A DNA stretch of 30,998 nt from a virus. Made by a program: the position numbers and the translations under genes. Positions 2,162 through 26,156 of this stretch are shown here, piece after piece. Numbering within the stretch: position 1 is the stretch's first letter; every line of letters starts with the position of its first letter. A model generated the notes under the pieces. The model was not told the origin of the DNA, ran no database searches, and was given only the letters and a program-made list of their open reading frames with translations. The stretch covers positions 1-30,998 of IMG/VR virus record IMGVR_UViG_3300025543_000129. One strand, written 5' to 3'.

Positions 2162-2801
2162 AGATCACAAATATCAAGTAATTAAGAAAGCTTTGTCTTA
2201 CGACATGGCTAATTTTATACTTAACTATTTTTTACTTAAAAGAGATGCAACAAGATTTATGTATGAAAATAACATACATTCACAGTCCCCGATCCTTGGA
2301 ACATGGACTGATCAACAGATACCTAATACTTATTCTTGTTATGGTGACTTTGTAATGGATACATTACTAGTTAAGATGTTGCCTGTAATGAAACAACATA
2401 CAGGACTAGATCTAATACCTACTTACTCTTACGCTAGAGCATATAAAAAAGGTGATGAACTACGAAGACATAAAGATAGACCTAGTTGTGAAATATCTAC
2501 GACTCTAAACTTAGGTGGAGATCCTTGGCCTATATTTATCGACGGTACGGGGGCTGACAGCGTCATAGACGAGTATAAAAACATACATAAGCCCAACGCA
2601 CCCAAAGGCACAAAAGTCTTGCTTGAAGTAGGTGATATGTTAGTATATAGTGGCTGTGAACTCGAACATTGGCGAGAGCCTTTTGACGGGAACATTTGTG
2701 GCCAAGTATTTCTACATTATAATCATGTAAACGGCCCATTTGCTGATAAAAACAGATTTGACGGAAGACCTATGTTAGGTCTACCATCATTTGTAAAATA
2801 G
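2154..2801 (+). CDS. 2OG-Fe(II) oxygenase-like protein (5)
   Basis: A 215 aa protein with candidate ligands His106 and Asp108 in ELRRHKDRPSCEISTTLNL and distal His172 in CELEHWREPF, followed by the QVFLHY strand. This is a 2OG dioxygenase pattern common in marine phages, with an atypical 2-oxoglutarate-binding end: no Arg at the usual place in GNICGQVFLHY. The stretch 2521-2640 is 55/120 G+C, clearly above the surrounding AT-rich DNA, and uses codons such as GCC, CCC and GTC that neighbours avoid, hinting at a recombined patch. It is the last of five adjacent oxygenase-fold genes; the virion module follows after 17 bases. Confidence 0.78.
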   Translation: MFRDHKYQVIKKALSYDMANFILNYFLLKRDATRFMYENNIHSQSPILGTWTDQQIPNTYSCYGDFVMDTLLVKMLPVMKQHTGLDLIPTYSYARAYKKGDELRRHKDRPSCEISTTLNLGGDPWPIFIDGTGADSVIDEYKNIHKPNAPKGTKVLLEVGDMLVYSGCELEHWREPFDGNICGQVFLHYNHVNGPFADKNRFDGRPMLGLPSFVK

Positions 2802-2818
2802 TATTATAATGGAGCCAT

Positions 2819-4993
2819 ATGTTACAAAAGATAGGATTTCAACCTGGATTCAATAAACAGATTACAGAAACCACGGCCGAAGGACAATGGGTCGGAGGAG
2901 ATAATGTACGTTTTAGATATGGCACACCAGAGAAGATAGGTGGTTGGTCACAATTAGGTGAATCAAAACTTACAGGAGCTGCAAGGGCTCTGCATCACTT
3001 AGTTAATAGATCTGGTAACAAGTTCGCTATAATAGGTACAAATAGAGTTTTATATGCATATACTGGTGGTGTATTTTATGACATACATCCTATTAAATCT
3101 ACAACAACTCTTTCTAATGCATTTAGCACGACGAATGGATCAGCAACAGTTACTATAACTTTTAGCACAGATCACAATATTCAAGAAAACGATATTATTC
3201 TTTTAGATAATTTTACGACAATTACTAATTCAAATTATTCAGCATCAGATTTTGATGATAAAAAATTTATGGTGACATCTGTGCCAACAGCAACTACCCT
3301 AACTATTACTATGCCCTCTAATGAAACAGGTTCAGGTGCAACAACATCGGGTGGTATTAGAGTTCAACATTATTATCCAGTAGGACCTGCAGAACAATTA
3401 CCTGGTTTTGGTTGGGGACTAGCTTCTTGGGGTGGAACAGTAACAGGTGAAGCAACCACTACTTTAAATGGTGGTATCAATGCTGTTACAACTACTATTG
3501 TATTAACAGATGCATCTTTGTTTCCAACTTCAGGAACAAACTTTATTCAAATAGGATCAGAAGAAATTTCATACACAGGTATAAGTAGCAACACTTTAAC
3601 AGGTGTTACAAGAGGAGTTAGAAATACAACAGCTGCAACACATTCTAATGGTGCGACCGTACTTAATAGTTCTGATTACATTGCATGGGGTGAAGCTGCA
3701 TCAGGAGATTTAGTTGTAGATCCTGGTTTATGGTCTATTGATAATTTTGGTGATAAAGTAATTGCACTAATTCATAATGCACAAGTATTTGAATGGGACT
3801 CAAATGCAACAAATGCTGTAACTAATAGAGCAACTATTATATCAGGTGCACCAACAGCATCTAGAGATATGTTAGTCTCTACACCTGACCGTCATTTAGT
3901 ATTCTTTGGAACAGAAACAACGATTGGAACACCTTCTACACAAGATGAAATGTTTATTAGATTTTCTAACCAAGAAGATATTAATACTTATCAACCAACA
4001 GCAGTTAATACTGCAGGCACACAAAGACTAGCTGACGGGTCTAAAATTGTAGGTGCTGTTAGAGGTAGGGATGCAATCTATGTTTGGACAGATACATCTT
4101 TATTTACTATGAGATTTATTGGTCAACCATTTACTTTTGGTTTTCAACAAGTAGGAACGAACTGCGGATTGATTGGACAGAATGCTGCATTAGAAGTTGA
4201 TGGAGCTGCATATTGGTTTTCAGAAAATGGTTTTTTTAAATATTCTGGTAATCTAGAAACTATGAAATGTTTAGTAGAAGATTTTGTATTTAATGATTTA
4301 AATACAACAGCCAATCAATTAATTAATGTCGGACTAAATAATTTGTTTGGTGAGATTACTTGGTTTTATTGCACTGAAAGTTCAACTGTTATTAATAGAT
4401 GTGTAACATATAACTATTTAGATTCTACTCCTCAAAGACCTGTGTGGACAACAGGAACTTTAGCAAGAGGTGCATGGCAAGATTCGTCTGTATTTGGTCT
4501 ACCTCATGCAACTAGTTTCACTGCAGACGATGATGCATCATTTGATGTAGTGGGTAATACTGAAGGAAGCACAATATACTTTGAACACGAAAAAGGAACT
4601 GATGAAGCATTAGCTAATGGCATAAATGTAATTACATCTAATATTGAATCTGGAGATTTTGATATTACTCAAGCAAGATCTAGACAAGGACAAATGACAG
4701 GTGTTTCTGATTTTAGAGGAGACGGAGAATATTTAATGAAAATACGAAGATTTGTACCAGATTTTTTATCTCAAACAGGTAATACTCAAGTAACACTACA
4801 ATTAAAGAATTACCCTAATAGTTCTCAAGCAAGTTCTCCACTAGGGCCATTTACAATTACTTCATCTACTGATAAGGTAGATACTCGTGCAAGAGCAAGA
4901 GCCATATCTTTAAAGGTAGCTAATACAGCTGTTAATCAAAGTTGGAAACTTGGCACGTTCAGATTAGATACACAACCAGATGGTAGAAGATAA
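2819..4993 (+). CDS. large beta-rich virion protein (tail/connector, stabilisation-like)
   Basis: A 724 aa protein, Thr/Ser/Asn-rich and predicted almost all beta. The N-terminus (QPGFNKQITET... W..GD.VRFRYGTPEKIGGW, residues 8-43) is a pattern I know from marine podovirus virion proteins and recalls P22 gp10-type DNA-stabilisation/tail proteins. Two beta modules seem inserted: residues about 100-182, and about 213-283 with the FPTSGTNFIQIGSEEISYTG...LTGVTRG pattern that recurs in many marine phage structural proteins. The remainder reads as repeated short strands, as in a propeller. A GGAG at 2811-2814 precedes the ATG by 4 bases. The stop overlaps the next ATG (TAATG). A role at the head-tail interface or tail nozzle is inference from position and similarity. 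Confidence 0.7.
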   Translation: MLQKIGFQPGFNKQITETTAEGQWVGGDNVRFRYGTPEKIGGWSQLGESKLTGAARALHHLVNRSGNKFAIIGTNRVLYAYTGGVFYDIHPIKSTTTLSNAFSTTNGSATVTITFSTDHNIQENDIILLDNFTTITNSNYSASDFDDKKFMVTSVPTATTLTITMPSNETGSGATTSGGIRVQHYYPVGPAEQLPGFGWGLASWGGTVTGEATTTLNGGINAVTTTIVLTDASLFPTSGTNFIQIGSEEISYTGISSNTLTGVTRGVRNTTAATHSNGATVLNSSDYIAWGEAASGDLVVDPGLWSIDNFGDKVIALIHNAQVFEWDSNATNAVTNRATIISGAPTASRDMLVSTPDRHLVFFGTETTIGTPSTQDEMFIRFSNQEDINTYQPTAVNTAGTQRLADGSKIVGAVRGRDAIYVWTDTSLFTMRFIGQPFTFGFQQVGTNCGLIGQNAALEVDGAAYWFSENGFFKYSGNLETMKCLVEDFVFNDLNTTANQLINVGLNNLFGEITWFYCTESSTVINRCVTYNYLDSTPQRPVWTTGTLARGAWQDSSVFGLPHATSFTADDDASFDVVGNTEGSTIYFEHEKGTDEALANGINVITSNIESGDFDITQARSRQGQMTGVSDFRGDGEYLMKIRRFVPDFLSQTGNTQVTLQLKNYPNSSQASSPLGPFTITSSTDKVDTRARARAISLKVANTAVNQSWKLGTFRLDTQPDGRR

Positions 4994-18860: not shown

Positions 18861-18893
18861 TTGTGGGCGTGGAAGCGAGAGTGGAAGCGCCCA
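18861..18893 (+). other. GC-rich inverted/direct repeat element before primase gene
   Basis: This 33-base stretch is 21/33 G+C in an AT-rich genome. It has an inverted repeat TGGGCG (18864-18869) / CGCCCA (18888-18893) and a direct repeat GTGGAAGCG (18869-18877 and 18881-18889, period 12). No poly-T follows, so it is not an ordinary terminator. A regulatory hairpin, an operator or an origin-type element are possible. It could instead be coding if translation starts upstream of the primase ATG (TTG at 18861). Confidence 0.45.
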
Positions 18894-18905
18894 TCAAAAA
18901 TTCGC

Positions 18906-20540
18906 ATGGAACAGAAATTTGTACAGATATTTGACGGTTTAAAAAGAGATTATGGATACGCAGAAGTTAGTAATGGTTACAAAGATTCAACAACAGGTAA
19001 GTTTAAAGTAAAACACGGTTGGGCAGGTAAACAACTAACATCAACGGATTATCTACAACATCTTAAGGGTGAGAAATCTATTGGCATACAGCCTTGTGAT
19101 GACAATGGTTTTGTTAGTTTTGGTGCAATTGATATAGACTCCAAAGCTTATCAAGATTTTAGTCCAAGAAAATATTTAGAGATTATAGAAAAGAATAATT
19201 TACCTGTCATACCAGTTAAATCAAAAAGTGGCGGACTTCATTTATACATTCATACAAAAGAAAAAGTCAAAGCTAGTTTTTTAAGAAATTTTTTAGACAA
19301 ACTATTATATACATTAGAATTAAATCCAACAACAGAAATATATCCAAAGCAAACGGAACTTGGAACAGGACCAGATGGTAGTTTTACAAATGGTAATTTT
19401 ATTAACCTACCATACTATAATAAAAATGAACGAGTTGCATTAAATTTAGATGGCACAGAATTTACTTTTGATCAATATATCAAAGTTGTTGATGCTAATT
19501 TAAAAACAGAAAAAGAATTAAATGAATTTATTGATGCACACATTAGTAAAATTCTTACAGGTGGTGCAGAAGAATTTGCAGATGGTCCACCATGTTTGCA
19601 AGCAATATCAAAAACAATAGATGATAGTAACAAACTACCCGATGAAAGAGATAGATTCTTATTTAATTACATGGTGTTTTGTAAAAAGAAATACCCAGAT
19701 CTTTGGGAAAAAAGAGTTTTAGAAGGTGCAAGAAAATATATTTTATATGATGAAGAGTGGGGAGATAAAAAAGTATTAGATAAAATAAAATCTTGGCGTA
19801 AACCAACTGCAGGACATTTATGTGATCAAGATCCAATAAGAAATTTTTGTATTAAATCTGAATGTGCAAAAAGACAATTTGGTTATATGTCAGATAAACA
19901 AAAGAAGTTTCCGCAGCTGTCCGCTTTAATTAGAATAGATTATCAACCTGAACCAGAATTTAGATTTACTGTAAATTTTAACGATAAACAAGATGGGGAA
20001 ATGAGTAAACAAGTTGTAGCTAGAGACATAAATTATTTAATGGACATGGAAAAATGTAGAAGACTGATTGGTGCACATACACCTATTGCTCCACCAAGAA
20101 TAAAACAAGATGAGTTTCAAACTATTATAGAAAATTTAAAAGAAACAGAGACAGTACAACCACCACCTTTAGGTACTTCTCCTAAAGAATTGTTACATAA
20201 ATATTTAGAAGAACATATTAATGGTGTACCTGCAGTAAGTGCAACTTCATTTGGTAGTGGATCTATTTTAAAAGAAGATGGATTTGCATATTTTACTATG
20301 GATGTTTTTTTTAATTATTTAAAAAATAAAGAATGGAAAATGAAATTTGAAAAGACTGGTAGAATGTTAATAGAAGAATTTAAATCAGAGTTAGGTCATT
20401 TAAAAAGATATCCTAAAAAAGATACAGATAAAAAATCACACAATCCAATTCGTTGTGTAAAAATTCCTATGACTTTCTTTGAAAGAGAAGAAGAGGATGC
20501 AGAAGAAATGCCAATGCAAGAAAAAGATAATATTCTATGA
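18906..20540 (+). CDS. archaeo-eukaryotic (AEP)-type primase with C-terminal Cys domain
   Basis: A 544 aa protein from the ATG at 18906. AEP motifs are visible: GAIDIDSKAY (Asp76, Asp78; divalent metals), KSKSGGLHLYI (His112; nucleotide binding), and the NFINLPYYN segment near 164 typical of primases of the TOTE/primase-polymerase type. Four cysteines, PPCL (Cys230) and C306, C315, C320 in HLCDQDPIRNFCIKSEC, are spaced like the C-terminal zinc or Fe-S primase domain. The frame stays open upstream to a TTG at 18861, but that codes a repeat-rich WAWKREWKRP stretch and neither start has a good RBS. It overlaps the helicase gene by 4 nt (ATGA). It probably primes replication with the UvrD-like helicase and the polymerase. 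Confidence 0.82.
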   Translation: MEQKFVQIFDGLKRDYGYAEVSNGYKDSTTGKFKVKHGWAGKQLTSTDYLQHLKGEKSIGIQPCDDNGFVSFGAIDIDSKAYQDFSPRKYLEIIEKNNLPVIPVKSKSGGLHLYIHTKEKVKASFLRNFLDKLLYTLELNPTTEIYPKQTELGTGPDGSFTNGNFINLPYYNKNERVALNLDGTEFTFDQYIKVVDANLKTEKELNEFIDAHISKILTGGAEEFADGPPCLQAISKTIDDSNKLPDERDRFLFNYMVFCKKKYPDLWEKRVLEGARKYILYDEEWGDKKVLDKIKSWRKPTAGHLCDQDPIRNFCIKSECAKRQFGYMSDKQKKFPQLSALIRIDYQPEPEFRFTVNFNDKQDGEMSKQVVARDINYLMDMEKCRRLIGAHTPIAPPRIKQDEFQTIIENLKETETVQPPPLGTSPKELLHKYLEEHINGVPAVSATSFGSGSILKEDGFAYFTMDVFFNYLKNKEWKMKFEKTGRMLIEEFKSELGHLKRYPKKDTDKKSHNPIRCVKIPMTFFEREEEDAEEMPMQEKDNIL

Positions 20541-21970
20541 TAAAAAAATTTTACGGTCCTCCAGGTACAGGTAAAACAGAAAAATTAATTAGGAGAGCAT
20601 TAGCTTATATTAGAATAGGCACACCAATAGAAAGAATAGGGTACTTTGCTTTTACTAAAAAGGCAGCTATTGAAGCTAAAGAAAGAATGTTAAATAAAAA
20701 TAAACAGTTTCAAAAAAAAGATTTAAAATATTTTCAAACACTGCATTCATTAGCTTTTCATACATTAGGTTTAAAAGAAGAAAATGTTATGCAAGATTAT
20801 CATTATGATGATTTAGGTAAAATATTAAGCATTAGTGTAAAAGCAAAAAGAGATCTAGACTCTTCACCTTATCTAACTTGTGACAATGAATACTTTCAAA
20901 TTATAACCAAGGCTAGAGAAAAAGACATAGAAGTTTGGGATGAATATTGTACCGGTGAATATGGTAAAGATATAAGACCTAACATATTAAAACATGTTGC
21001 ACTTAATTATTTAAAATACAAAAAAAATAATACCTTAATAGATTTTACAGATATGATTCATCAGTTCATACAAAAGAAACATTTATGTCCTCAATTTGAT
21101 GTAGTATTTATTGATGAAGCTCAAGATCTATCTCCAATACAATGGCAAATGTTTGATATTTTAAAATCAAATACAAAAGATATGTACCTTGCGGGAGATG
21201 ATGATCAAGCAATCTACGCTTGGGCAGGAGCGGATGTAGATAGATTTATACAAGAACCTGCAACAGAAGTAGTTTTAAAAAAATCAAGAAGGGTGCCAAT
21301 AAAAGTTCAAGATATATCTAATATTATTGTAAGTAGAATAGAAGGCTTACGAGCAATTAAAGATTATCATCCAAAAAATGAAGAGGGAAACTGCATAACA
21401 ATTAATAATATAGATAATGTAGATCTCTATAAAGATAACTGGTTAATACTTACTAGAACAATTGATAAATCTATTAAGATTGCAAAAGAACTTAGACTTA
21501 AAGGTTTATATTTTGAAAACAAATATATCAAAAGTTTTAATTCAAAATTATATAAAGCAGCTGTTTATTATTCAAGATGGTCTGAAGGACAAGAACTAGA
21601 TTCTACACAGGTAGATGATGTTGAAGATTATATGTTAGATAATAATTGGAATGAATTGTTACCTTGGTATGAGGCTTTTGATAAAGCTAATAATGAAGAA
21701 AAGAATTATATAAGATTATTACTTTCAAATAAAGAAAATTTAAATGAAGAACCCAGAATAAAAATATCTACGATTCATGCAGCAAAAGGTGGTGAATCAG
21801 AGAATGTTTTGTTGTTATTAGATAATGCTAGAAAAATAAGAGAAGCTGTGGTAAAAAGTAGTAAAAAAAGAGATGAAGAACATAGAGTATGGTATGTGGG
21901 AGTAACACGTAGCAAAAGAAATTTATACTTGATGAGAGCAAAAATAGAAAGGTATGGTTATTATTTATGA
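20537..21970 (+). CDS. UvrD/Rep-like superfamily 1 DNA helicase
   Basis: A 477 aa SF1A helicase. Walker A is GPPGTGKT (residues 7-14), motif Ia FTKKAAIEA, motif II DEAQD (193-197), motif III AGDDDQAIYAWAGAD (219-233), motif V STIHAAKGGESENVLLLL, and motif VI HRVWYVGVTRSKRNLYL near the C-terminus. It is shorter than cellular UvrD (about 720 aa), lacking much of the 1B/2B insertions, as is usual for phage versions. It is coupled to the primase by ATGA and to the next gene by ATGA. It likely unwinds DNA at the phage fork or in repair. No DnaB-like helicase is in the window, so this or the Snf2 protein may be the fork helicase. Confidence 0.93.
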   Translation: MIKKFYGPPGTGKTEKLIRRALAYIRIGTPIERIGYFAFTKKAAIEAKERMLNKNKQFQKKDLKYFQTLHSLAFHTLGLKEENVMQDYHYDDLGKILSISVKAKRDLDSSPYLTCDNEYFQIITKAREKDIEVWDEYCTGEYGKDIRPNILKHVALNYLKYKKNNTLIDFTDMIHQFIQKKHLCPQFDVVFIDEAQDLSPIQWQMFDILKSNTKDMYLAGDDDQAIYAWAGADVDRFIQEPATEVVLKKSRRVPIKVQDISNIIVSRIEGLRAIKDYHPKNEEGNCITINNIDNVDLYKDNWLILTRTIDKSIKIAKELRLKGLYFENKYIKSFNSKLYKAAVYYSRWSEGQELDSTQVDDVEDYMLDNNWNELLPWYEAFDKANNEEKNYIRLLLSNKENLNEEPRIKISTIHAAKGGESENVLLLLDNARKIREAVVKSSKKRDEEHRVWYVGVTRSKRNLYLMRAKIERYGYYL

Positions 21971-22227
21971 AAAATAAAGATACATTTAAGATAATAAATG
22001 AAACTTCTGAAAGAATTATATACGACTCATTAAACAAGCAGGTAGATGGAAAACATTATTCTAAAATGAAAATTCAACCTGCAGAATTTATTAATGAAAA
22101 CAAATTATTATTTGCTGAGGGCAATGCTATAAAATATATTTGTAGACATCAATCAAAAGGAAAAGAAAAAGATATTCAAAAAGCAATTCATTATCTTGAA
22201 ATGATATTAGAAAGAGATTATTCGTGA
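21967..22227 (+). CDS. DUF3310 family protein
   Basis: An 86 aa protein with the DUF3310 pattern: HYSKMKIQPAEFI (about residues 30-42), then FAEGNAIKYICRHQSKGKEK DIQKAIHYLEMIL (about 49-81). This small helical domain is common in phage replication modules and is often annotated as nucleotide-kinase-like; its biochemical role is unsettled. It is linked by 4-nt ATGA-type overlaps to the helicase before and to the methyltransferase after. The N-terminal 28 residues are a Lys/Asp-rich extension. Confidence 0.85.
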   Translation: MKNKDTFKIINETSERIIYDSLNKQVDGKHYSKMKIQPAEFINENKLLFAEGNAIKYICRHQSKGKEKDIQKAIHYLEMILERDYS

Positions 22228-23663
22228 ATAAAAAATTAAAAGTTCTTGATTTATTTTCTGGTATAGGTGGCTTTGCATTAGGCTTAGACTCTACAGGAAT
22301 ATTTGAGACTGTAAAATTTGTTGAAAAAGATAAATATTGCAAGAGAGTTCTACAAAAGAACTTTCCTAACATACCAATAGAGGAGGATATAAAAAATGTC
22401 GAAGGAAAAGAAGGAGACGCAGATGTCGTTGTGGGAGGGTTCCCCTGCCAACCAATGTCAGTCGCAGGTAAAAGAAAAGGAACAGATGACGACCGCTATC
22501 TCTGGCCAGAAATGTTTAGACTCATTAAACAAATCAAACCCCAATTCGTTATTGGGGAGAATGTGCAAGGAATTATTAACATCCAAAACGGCATGGTACT
22601 CAGACAGGTGCAAGACGACTTGGAAAGTGAAGGTTTCGAAGTCCAATGTTTCCTTATTCCAGCTTCAGGCATCGGTGCTTGGCACCAAAGGTACAGAGTC
22701 TGGATTGTGGGCCACTCCGAACACAATGGATTACTTACCTCCAAGATCGAAAGAAGGAACACTGAAACTACAGCAGGGACACAGGAAGGGCAGAACCAAA
22801 CCATCCAATCTGAGAGAACAAGTGGATTCAGAAACGATGAAGATGTATCCAACACCGAACGCAAGGGATTGGAAGGACTCAGTAAACAAAGTACCACCTT
22901 CAGTGGGCAAGACTCGGGGACACAGTTTAGGTCAACGAATAGCAGCAGATCAAGAGAAAAGGATGTATCCAACACCACAGAGATCAGATCATCTAGCAAA
23001 TCAATCGGAAACATTAGAAGCTTGGAAGAAGAGAGCAAAACAAAAGAAAGAGGAGAAGGGAATCAATCTTCAGTTCGCACTTCGTCACGCAGTGCAGAAG
23101 GAAGAGGAAGAGAAGAGAATGTATCCAACACCGAGATCATCGGGACAGGAGAATCCAGAAACATTGATCAAGAGGAAAGGAATCAAAGCAGCAGCTCAAC
23201 ACAATCTAACAGCAGCAGTGAAGATGTTTCCAACACCAACAGTGGGATGCGAAGAGGGTGGAGAACAATCGGAGAGAGTGGAGAGGACAAAGTCTGGAGG
23301 TTTTATTCTGAGGAAGAAGAACAAACCCGAGTCGACATTCGGAGCAAAACTATCAGACGCGATGTTATATCTGGAGAAAGAGATGTATTACAGTCCGACG
23401 ACGAACGACGGGAAGAATGTAACGTTTCCGATCAGTCAAAAGAACAGATCGTCGATAATTGGGGACATAATACGGATGGACAAAAACAAACCTGGTGGCA
23501 AATTGAATCCAACGTTTGTGGAGTTCCTAATGGGATTTCCTATGGATTGGACAAAGACAGAGCAAACAGAATAAAAACTTTAGGTAACGCAATAGTTCCT
23601 CAAATAGCAAGAGAAATAGGATTAGCAATAAAGAAAGTTTTATATGATCATACCAAGATTTGA
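22224..23663 (+). CDS. dcm: DNA (cytosine-5) methyltransferase with overprinted variable region
   Basis: A 479 aa C5-cytosine methyltransferase. Motif I is DLFSGIGG (residues 9-16; SAM binding), motif IV GFPCQPMS with catalytic Cys75, motif VI ENV (112-114), motif VIII QRYRVW (155-160), and motif X LGNAIVPQIAREIG near 453-466, preceded by a WWQIES...RVANG-like segment (VCGVPNGISYGLD). Between VIII and X, residues 160-430 are not an ordinary target-recognition domain but Ser/Glu/Arg/Thr-rich with repeated D-V-S-N-T (first at 207-211). That whole stretch is also open in the +1 frame, coding a separate protein with its own RBS. It overlaps DUF3310 by 4 nt and the polymerase gene by 20 nt. It probably protects phage DNA from host restriction; the recognition sequence is unknown. 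Confidence 0.9.
   Translation: MNKKLKVLDLFSGIGGFALGLDSTGIFETVKFVEKDKYCKRVLQKNFPNIPIEEDIKNVEGKEGDADVVVGGFPCQPMSVAGKRKGTDDDRYLWPEMFRLIKQIKPQFVIGENVQGIINIQNGMVLRQVQDDLESEGFEVQCFLIPASGIGAWHQRYRVWIVGHSEHNGLLTSKIERRNTETTAGTQEGQNQTIQSERTSGFRNDEDVSNTERKGLEGLSKQSTTFSGQDSGTQFRSTNSSRSREKDVSNTTEIRSSSKSIGNIRSLEEESKTKERGEGNQSSVRTSSRSAEGRGREENVSNTEIIGTGESRNIDQEERNQSSSSTQSNSSSEDVSNTNSGMRRGWRTIGESGEDKVWRFYSEEEEQTRVDIRSKTIRRDVISGERDVLQSDDERREECNVSDQSKEQIVDNWGHNTDGQKQTWWQIESNVCGVPNGISYGLDKDRANRIKTLGNAIVPQIAREIGLAIKKVLYDHTKI
22381..22386 (+). promoter_or_regulatory. internal consensus ribosome-binding site AGGAGG
   Basis: A perfect AGGAGG lies within the methyltransferase coding sequence, 9 bases before the ATG of the embedded frame at 22396. 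A second purine site AAGGAG at 22411-22416 precedes the in-frame ATG at 22423. These are the main start signals for the overprinted gene. Confidence 0.65.
22396..23574 (+). CDS. overprinted partner gene inside dcm: YPTP-repeat protein
   Basis: A 392 aa frame lying entirely inside the methyltransferase gene, +1 frame. It has AGGAGG 9 bases before ATG 22396, and a second in-frame ATG at 22423 with AAGGAG 6 bases before it. Residues 35-100 are compact and Cys-bearing (SGQKCLDSL, RMCKELL, SDRCKTTWKV). Six units follow, each opening with a W/Y/F-x-T/S-P motif (LWATP 104, MYPTP 150, 190, 242; MFPTP 277; MYYSP 330) and several ending in L-x-x-A-V/M. The end is LNPTFVEFLMGFPMDWT. The PTP units plus terminal GFP-x-x-W match, as I recall, a phage family often beside dcm genes. 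The function is unknown; a target-recognition or regulatory partner is speculation. Confidence 0.72.
   Translation: MSKEKKETQMSLWEGSPANQCQSQVKEKEQMTTAISGQKCLDSLNKSNPNSLLGRMCKELLTSKTAWYSDRCKTTWKVKVSKSNVSLFQLQASVLGTKGTESGLWATPNTMDYLPPRSKEGTLKLQQGHRKGRTKPSNLREQVDSETMKMYPTPNARDWKDSVNKVPPSVGKTRGHSLGQRIAADQEKRMYPTPQRSDHLANQSETLEAWKKRAKQKKEEKGINLQFALRHAVQKEEEEKRMYPTPRSSGQENPETLIKRKGIKAAAQHNLTAAVKMFPTPTVGCEEGGEQSERVERTKSGGFILRKKNKPESTFGAKLSDAMLYLEKEMYYSPTTNDGKNVTFPISQKNRSSIIGDIIRMDKNKPGGKLNPTFVEFLMGFPMDWTKTEQTE
22843..23237 (+). repeat. dispersed in-phase repeat ATGTATCCAACACC in dcm overlap
   Basis: The 14-mer ATGTATCCAACACC occurs at 22843-22856, 22963-22976 and 23119-23132, with a one-base variant ATGTTTCCAACACC at 23224-23237. 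The intervals (120, 156, 105) are all multiples of three, so each copy reads V-S-N-T in the methyltransferase frame and M-Y-P-T-P (M-F-P-T-P in the variant) in the embedded frame. Flanks differ between copies, so this is a repeating coding motif rather than a recent tandem duplication. Confidence 0.85.
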
Positions 23664-25508: not shown

Positions 25509-26156
25509 ATGGCTTACTTAAATGCAAACATACCAGTAACTTATGCACAAATAAGAAGAGAATATTTATATGATCTTAAAAAACATCATGGAGAAGTTGA
25601 AGACTGTGTTATCTTTGGTCTTAGCTCTATTACAGGTAAGTCTATTTTATTTCATGCTATTATGGAAAATGGTGCGATCTTTTATAGACTCCCTATCACA
25701 GCATTTATCCAACGTGGATTTGAAGTTAAGGATGTACCTAAACGTAGACTTGATGAGCTTCAGCTTTGGAATTGTTTTAGTTATTATCCTTCTGTACATT
25801 CTTGGGATATCTTAGACGGACAAGCAGGAAAGTATATAGGTAAAGATAAAAAGTGGCACCCAGGTAAATATTTATTTACTGTTGATTTTGCTCATCCAGA
25901 GAGTAATATACTTGATACAGATCATTCTGAAATACCGCACGAACATAAGTGCGCTCACATAATTGCATTAGATGATGGTAATTATGCAGCACAACCTAAC
26001 AACAGATGTATATGGGACATACCTTCTTTCACTGTGAGAGATGATATACCTGACTGGAAAGTGCAAACATCTGAGTGGAACGTAGAGGATAGTAGAGCAT
26101 GGCGGACAGAAGATACCGACAAGTTCTTCTATGAAATTGAGGAGAAGAAAAAATGA
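25509..26156 (+). CDS. conserved marine-phage protein, 215 aa, unknown function
   Basis: Follows the polymerase by 2 bases. The N-terminal part (YLYDLKKHHGEVEDCVIFGL then SSITGKSILFHAIMENGAIF then YRLPITAF) is a pattern I know from marine phages directly after polA. The middle has WNCFSYYPSVHSWDIL and KYLFTVDFAHPE, and there is a His-rich segment DTDHSEIPHEHKCAHIIALD. It is rich in Trp, Tyr and His, suggesting a metal or nucleic-acid-binding protein, but no catalytic signature is clear. It overlaps the next tiny gene by 4 nt (ATGA). Confidence 0.65.
   Translation: MAYLNANIPVTYAQIRREYLYDLKKHHGEVEDCVIFGLSSITGKSILFHAIMENGAIFYRLPITAFIQRGFEVKDVPKRRLDELQLWNCFSYYPSVHSWDILDGQAGKYIGKDKKWHPGKYLFTVDFAHPESNILDTDHSEIPHEHKCAHIIALDDGNYAAQPNNRCIWDIPSFTVRDDIPDWKVQTSEWNVEDSRAWRTEDTDKFFYEIEEKKK

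What the first reader, a model, noticed from the sequence alone, without database searches (positions are those of the whole stretch)
22224..23663. A 392-codon gene overprinted entirely inside a C5-methyltransferase gene
The methyltransferase frame (22224-23663) has all key motifs (DLFSGIGG, catalytic PCQ, ENV, QRYRVW, GNAIVP), so it is real. The +1 frame is open from 22396 to 23574, carries AGGAGG with a 9-base spacer, and encodes an ordered product: a Cys-bearing N-domain, six P-repeat units, and a conserved-looking LNPTFVEFLMGFPMDWT end. From memory the same kind of protein occurs as a separate gene beside phage dcm genes. The methyltransferase stretch overlapped by the repeats (residues about 165-430) is low-complexity, as if shaped by the second frame. 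Long same-strand overlaps with two functional products are rare in phages.
Basis: partly seen in the sequence, partly recalled or inferred. Interest (0 to 1): 0.85.

Follow-up and report, generated by a model that had tools for sequence, protein, structure and literature searches.

The report
Two enzyme halves from overlapping frames
A phage DNA-methylation gene carries, read one base over in the same stretch, a second real gene that very probably encodes the missing target-recognising half of the same enzyme; the arrangement is conserved across distant phages, and often only one of the two genes is annotated.

Summary
Every homologue examined keeps the +1 frame open: 22,960 codons scanned hold 2 stops in +1 against 1,827 in +2. 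The fixed ATG and its Shine-Dalgarno site are conserved beyond what the methyltransferase residues force. An overlap-aware dN/dS gives w(+1)=0.08 and w(MTase frame)=1.06 across the repeats. There the +1 frame is the constrained protein, and the MTase frame drifts but is never stopped (0 stop changes, 33 expected).

It is most probably not an unrelated overprinted gene but the other half of the same enzyme. The long frame (alpha) carries C5-MTase motifs I-VIII and X. The nested frame (beta) carries an N-domain, six PTP cassettes and motif IX. In actinophages the same cassettes, motif IX and motif X sit in one frame with motifs I-VIII, as a single-chain MTase. The split matches M.EcoHK31I as described in the literature. 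The cassettes are shuffled between close relatives, as expected of target-recognition units.

Nested beta was found in 160 of 160 further alphas and 52 of 52 bacterial hits; none stands alone. New are the cassette array in the nested subunit, the evidence that recognition lies in beta, and the breadth. Activity and multispecificity are inferred.

The parts
22224..23663 (+). alpha: C5-cytosine MTase long frame (479 aa), motifs I-VIII and X
   Evidence: PF00145 E=5e-50, TIGR00675 E=3e-47; translation
22224..22718 (+). alpha catalytic part, motifs I-VIII (DLFSGIGG, PCQ, ENV, QRYRVW)
   Evidence: w0 0.05-0.09 in this part
22719..23564 (+). alpha frame through the overlap: low-complexity stretch that evolves neutrally across the cassettes but is kept open
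   Evidence: cassettes w0=1.06 [0.78-1.52]; motif IX part w0=0.55 [0.39-1.00]; 0 stop changes seen, 33 + 7 expected; 80/80 homologues open
23577..23660 (+). alpha motif X (LGNAIVPQIAREIG) and C-terminus, downstream of the beta stop
   Evidence: w0=0.029; pos3 rate recovers right after the beta stop
22381..22386 (+). Shine-Dalgarno AGGAGG of beta
   Evidence: kept in 65/80 homologues; null from synonymous codons mean 10, max 19
22396..23574 (+). beta: nested +1 gene (392 aa plus stop), probable recognition/motif IX subunit
   Evidence: phrog_1008 E=6e-29; w(+1) 0.08-0.33
22396..22704 (+). beta N-domain (residues 1-103), overlaps alpha motifs IV-VIII
   Evidence: w(+1) 0.22-0.33; conserved TWK..(S/T)..LFQL.(A/P)S motif
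22705..22842 (+). beta cassette 1 (type C, LWATPNTMD...)
   Evidence: cassette parsing
22843..22962 (+). beta cassette 2 (type A, MYPTPNARDWKD...)
22963..23118 (+). beta cassette 3 (type J, MYPTPQRSDHLA...)
23119..23223 (+). beta cassette 4 (type D, MYPTPRSSGQEN...)
23224..23382 (+). beta cassette 5 (type B, MFPTPTVGCEEG...)
23383..23499 (+). beta cassette 6 (type A, MYYSPTTNDGKN...)
23500..23553 (+). beta motif IX-like element KLNPTFVEFLMGFPMDWT, immediately before alpha motif X
   Evidence: hhalign to the in-frame element of single-chain actinophage MTases, E=1.8e-8; w(+1)=0.083

Best explanation
The locus encodes one heterodimeric C5-cytosine DNA methyltransferase from two overlapping frames. 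Alpha (frame 0) makes the AdoMet-binding catalytic part (motifs I-VIII) and, after a long unconserved linker, motif X. Beta is started independently from its own ATG and Shine-Dalgarno site inside alpha. It supplies an N-domain, an array of 27-58 aa PTP cassettes that act as target-recognition units, and motif IX. The two chains assemble into a complete MTase that protects phage DNA from host restriction. Gain, loss and shuffling of cassettes would change which sequences are methylated. Shown: both frames are selected, the independent start is conserved, motifs are divided between the frames, cassettes are shuffled, and a single-chain homologue exists. Inferred: physical assembly, activity, DNA recognition by cassettes, multispecificity and the anti-restriction role.
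For: Selection: +1 open in all homologues. Rates by codon position switch exactly at the beta borders. Overlap-aware dN/dS: catalytic overlap w0 .06/w+1 .27; cassettes w0 1.06/w+1 .083; motif IX w+1 .083; outside the overlap w+1 about 0.8-0.9, not distinguishable from 1. Initiation: ATG at the fixed site 72/80 (null mean 31, max 43) and SD 65/80 (null mean 10, max 19). Non-overlapped evidence: in 15 distinct homologues beta runs about 130 codons past alpha's stop and is protein-like there, with one more PTP cassette. Function: motif IX-like end in beta and motif X in alpha are adjacent in the DNA. Actinophage MTases carry cassettes + IX + X in one frame with I-VIII. In Vash, Abidatro and L197 frame 0 ends after motif VIII and the +1 ORF carries cassettes + IX + X. 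Profile match beta to single-chain form E=1.6e-8. phrog_1008 joins beta and those C-terminal halves. The single-chain model matches M.HhaI over 12-325, Z 23.4, rmsd 3.3, 233 aligned. PMC3404938 describes M.EcoHK31I as large subunit I-VIII+X, small subunit motif IX.
Against: No experiment. AlphaFold2 of beta alone is unusable (pLDDT 50), and in the single-chain model the cassettes have pLDDT below 50, so no structure supports DNA recognition by cassettes. The cassettes have no sequence match in the PDB. Motif IX is assigned by position, pattern and the single-chain homologue; its profile did not itself find C5-MTases of known structure convincingly. For M.EcoHK31I the TRD was predicted in the large subunit, contrary to what the rates show here. 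No EcoHK31I sequence could be compared.
Confidence: 0.85

Rival explanations
1. Shadow conservation: the +1 similarity and openness are by-products of conserved MTase residues and codon bias; no second protein.
For: Some +1 motifs do mirror alpha motifs (VAD/VSNT gives WPTP/YPTP; VADGIP gives WLMGFP), so similarity of +1 translations alone proves little.
Against: Openness is far beyond synonymous shuffles; cassettes have w0=1.06 and w+1=0.08, so alpha cannot be forcing them; beta continues conserved beyond alpha's stop; SD and ATG are kept beyond null.
Confidence: 0.02
2. Programmed frameshifting: alpha's ribosomes shift +1 after motif VIII to make one chain with motifs I-VIII, cassettes and motif IX, rather than a separately initiated beta.
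For: Actinophage single-chain forms show that such a chain is a sensible enzyme.
Against: Beta has its own conserved ATG and SD; the +1 frame is already constrained from the beta start (w+1 0.33 over alpha residues 58-90); alpha's frame is kept open to a strongly conserved motif X (w0 0.029), which a single shift would lose.
Confidence: 0.05
3. Beta is a functionally independent protein (for example an anti-restriction factor or nuclease) that only happens to overlap dcm.
For: No enzymatic domain or solved relative is recognised for beta; its N-domain has no counterpart in single-chain MTases.
Against: Never found without alpha in 52 bacterial and 160 viral hits; alpha's frame carries no constrained recognition region or motif IX of its own; beta's cassettes and motif IX are in-frame MTase parts in actinophages.
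Confidence: 0.08

Closest known systems
M.EcoHK31I (YGGCCR), two-polypeptide C5-MTase (Lee, Kam & Shaw 1995; described in PMC3404938)
   Same: Large subunit with motifs I-VIII and X; motif IX in a smaller polypeptide. From memory, not checked here: the small gene is nested in the large one in another frame.
   Different: There the TRD was predicted in the large subunit; here the recognition region of the large frame evolves neutrally and the cassettes sit in the small one. Here beta carries an array of several cassettes and is phage-borne.
Multispecific C5-MTases of Bacillus phages SPR, phi3T, rho11, SPbeta (Guenthert 1986; Trautner 1996, cited in PMC4190342 and PMC12707154)
   Same: Several recognition units of roughly 40 aa in tandem between motifs VIII and IX (unit size from memory); phage self-protection.
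   Different: There one chain and one frame; here the array is in a nested out-of-frame subunit.
M.AquI, split C5-MTase (PMC3404938)
   Same: Two polypeptides; the smaller carries the C-terminal recognition part with motif IX. The Vash/Abidatro layout (IX and X in the smaller chain) is like AquI.
   Different: In the window motif X stays in the large chain and the small gene is fully nested.
Single-chain PTP-cassette C5-MTases of mycobacteriophages (L174-L192 here)
   Same: Same cassette type, motif IX element and shuffling of cassettes.
   Different: All in one frame; no separate beta.

Membership tests
C5-cytosine DNA methyltransferase (PF00145), alpha | Motifs I, IV (PCQ), VI (ENV), VIII (QxRxR) and X in order | tested here: met
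C5-cytosine DNA methyltransferase (PF00145), alpha | Own motif IX and constrained TRD in the same chain | tested here: not met
   No canonical motif IX seen in the alpha translation; cassettes region w0=1.06
M.EcoHK31I-type split C5-MTase | Large subunit with motifs I-VIII and X | tested here: met
   against description
M.EcoHK31I-type split C5-MTase | Motif IX in a second, smaller polypeptide | tested here: met
   by pattern, position and profile match to single-chain forms
M.EcoHK31I-type split C5-MTase | TRD in the large subunit (a prediction in the literature) | tested here: not met
   the large frame is neutral there, the small frame constrained
M.EcoHK31I-type split C5-MTase | Both polypeptides needed for methylation | not testable with these tools
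   needs expression
M.EcoHK31I-type split C5-MTase | Sequence homology to the EcoHK31I subunits | not tested
   sequence not found in the collections at hand; primary paper not held
Multispecific C5-MTase | Tandem variable recognition cassettes between motifs VIII and IX | tested here: met
   (position and modularity only)
Multispecific C5-MTase | Each cassette recognises its own DNA target | not testable with these tools
   needs methylome data
phrog_1008 | Profile match | tested here: met
   E=5.8e-29; all betas tested match

The most novel reading that the evidence does not exclude
A very widespread class of phage C5-MTases keeps its specificity in a fully nested +1 gene that carries a shuffling array of target-recognition cassettes, making a multispecific heterodimeric enzyme. 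The overlapped part of the catalytic subunit is a neutrally drifting linker whose only constraint is to contain no stop.
Probability: 0.6. Interest if true: 0.82.

Novelty: new variant of a known kind. Interest (0 to 1): 0.72.

Why it matters
A long same-strand nested gene under strong selection in both frames, conserved from marine phages to phages and prophages of Proteobacteria and Firmicutes (with an overlapping split form in actinophages), is rare. It offers a clean, replicated natural experiment on overlapping coding: one frame fully constrained, the other free except for stops. It also suggests that many phage 'DNA methyltransferase' annotations list half of an enzyme, that specificity should be predicted from the unannotated half, and that cloning the annotated frame with recoded codons would probably give an inactive protein. 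The cassette arrays may be a large untapped set of methylation specificities.

Tried and rejected
AlphaFold2 of beta alone: pLDDT 50, pTM 0.19, not interpretable. Beta profile against PDB sequences: no hit. The motif IX-X profile of single-chain forms against the PDB gave only weak hits, the best to unrelated chains. Search for papers describing nested beta genes in phage dcm genes: none found in the held library; the EcoHK31I primary paper and Meister 2010 are not held. 'Mte8-like' (annotation of beta in phage K1G) leads to no description of function. Considered and rejected: shadow conservation, frameshifting and an independent function (see rivals).

Full report
CHECK OF THE OBSERVATION. 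The window is a 30,998-base virus record. The MTase frame 22224-23663 and the +1 ORF 22396-23574 are as described. AGGAGG at 22381-22386 precedes the ATG at 22396 by 9 bases, and an in-frame TAA at 22390 closes the +1 frame just upstream. Alpha is a C5-MTase by Pfam and NCBIfam. The 392 aa product has no Pfam or NCBIfam hit but matches phrog_1008, labelled DNA methyltransferase.

NOT CHANCE. Shuffling alpha's own synonymous codons leaves on average 14.8 stops in the +1 stretch and never fewer than 6 in 4000 trials; with the codon usage of other window genes the mean is 21.9. Other window genes of 477-1414 codons carry 42-143 +1 stops each. Among 120 distinct IMG/VR homologues, fetched with either protein, 80 run from motif I to motif X. 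Over 22,960 codons these have 2 stops in +1 (both in L076/L077, just upstream of their beta start) and 1,827 in +2.

WHICH FRAME IS SELECTED. Substitutions by codon position change abruptly at the beta borders. Before and after the overlap, frame-0 position 3 is fastest, as in any gene. Over the catalytic overlap it is slowed two- to three-fold. Over the cassettes frame-0 position 1, which is +1 position 3, becomes the fastest. I fitted dN/dS for both frames together on 36 disjoint pairs. Before the overlap: w0=.051, w+1=.77 (not distinguishable from 1). Catalytic overlap.058/.27. Cassettes: w0=1.06 [0.78-1.52], w+1=.083 [0.061-0.114]. Motif IX: w0=.55, w+1=.083. After the overlap.029/.94. Frame-0 stop-creating changes over the cassettes: 0 seen, 33 expected. 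Of 80 complete betas, collected without regard to alpha, 80 have alpha's frame open throughout. So alpha is read through a stretch whose residues drift freely, to a strongly conserved motif X.

INDEPENDENT START. The beta ATG is at the same site in 72 of 80 homologues and an SD in 65 of 80. With the same alpha residues and random synonymous codons the means are 31 and 10 (maxima 43 and 19). The SD survives although alpha's residues differ there (EED, EGD).

EVIDENCE FREE OF OVERLAP. In 15 distinct homologues beta runs about 130 codons past alpha's stop. There nothing overlaps, the other two frames are full of stops, and rates are those of a protein (.12-.24.06-.17.34-.37 for positions 1-3). 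This extension carries a further PTP cassette (FYRTPTAMDKGDNS...), so PTP units are a true protein feature and not a shadow of alpha.

BREADTH. The same +1 nested protein lies in dcm genes of Paenibacillus, Lacticaseibacillus, Vibrio, Guernseyvirinae, Pseudomonas, Xanthomonas and Peduoviridae phages and a cyanophage. In phage K1G both frames are annotated. Alpha-only queries from the K1G and Tadhana lineages fetched 80 and 80 loci: all 160 carry beta in +1. A beta query of bacterial genomes gave 52 loci: all overlap alpha in +1 and none stands alone. The position-specific slowing is seen in these groups as well.

WHAT BETA IS. In mycobacteriophages such as Fancypants, one frame encodes motifs I-VIII, then PTP cassettes (LLPTPSAADG...), then PRLAAAFPEWMMGWPAGWV, then GNGVVP. 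In Streptomyces phage Vash, Arthrobacter phage Abidatro and L197, frame 0 ends after motif VIII, and a +1 ORF overlapping it carries cassettes, that motif and GNGVVP. Beta therefore corresponds to the C-terminal recognition half of a C5-MTase. Profile comparison aligns beta's cassettes and end to the single-chain form at E=1.6e-8, and the end alone at 1.8e-8. PHROGs place both in phrog_1008. The single-chain AlphaFold model aligns to M.HhaI over 12-325 (Z 23.4, rmsd 3.3, 233 aligned), with the cassettes at low confidence.

CASSETTES. 73 betas give 319 units, mostly 27-58 aa, in 30 clusters. The window reads C-A-J-D-B-A. Relatives read CDBA, CDJKOBA, CEADBAL, EDBAF and so on, the same units in other combinations. 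Single-chain actinophage MTases with near-identical catalytic parts likewise differ by whole cassettes. This is how recognition units behave in multispecific phage C5-MTases (established knowledge; Trautner 1996 cited in PMC12707154). That each unit reads its own DNA target is inference.

COMPARISON WITH THE KNOWN. PMC3404938 states that M.EcoHK31I has motifs I-VIII and X in the large subunit and motif IX in the small one, with the TRD predicted in the large. The window has the same division of motifs, but the rates place the constrained recognition region in the small frame. I recall, but could not check here, that the EcoHK31I small gene is also nested out of frame. I therefore say that it works like M.EcoHK31I; membership by sequence is untested. 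Novelty lies in the cassette array in a nested subunit, the neutral linker and the breadth.

LIMITS. No expression, binding or methylation data. Beta alone cannot be modelled. The linker result rests on marine relatives of this window. The likely reason beta is so often unannotated (gene callers limiting same-strand overlap) is from general knowledge and was not tested.

Noticed in passing
L171 (Propionibacterium phage B22) 590-2689: The MTase of phage B22 has an intein-like insertion exactly between P-C and C-Q of the catalytic motif IV (SPC|FVAGTSVLTHDG ... VVHN|CQDLS).
   Followed up: no
L024 1700-2206, L049, L058, L129 and others: Beta's C-terminal extension ends in a conserved TT(I)DHWLRSDHCFAYPTVEYWNxIKPYLK domain of about 60 aa, without a Pfam or PHROG match of its own; from memory a similar HWFRxD..YPS..W motif occurs in phage adenine MTases.
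   Followed up: partly
L001 (KT997847) 2291-3216 and L162 (Mycobacterium phage Ochi17) 2058-2817: Alpha is broken by frame changes (annotated as several 'methylase' pieces) while the +1 ORF looks intact or nearly so.
   Followed up: no
L170 (phage Fancypants) 1500-2075: Besides the in-frame cassettes, a +1 ORF with a beta-like N-domain and one PTP unit persists over motifs IV-VIII: a possible intermediate between the nested and the single-chain form.
   Followed up: no
window 25509-26156: Gene matching phrog_3704 'ferredoxin' (E=3e-73), an auxiliary metabolic gene candidate, downstream of the family A DNA polymerase.
   Followed up: no
window 18861-20540: Primase of the AEP/TOTE type (PF22548, phrog_21866) next to a UvrD-like helicase (20537-21970) and a DUF3310 protein (21967-22227) directly before alpha.
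   Followed up: no
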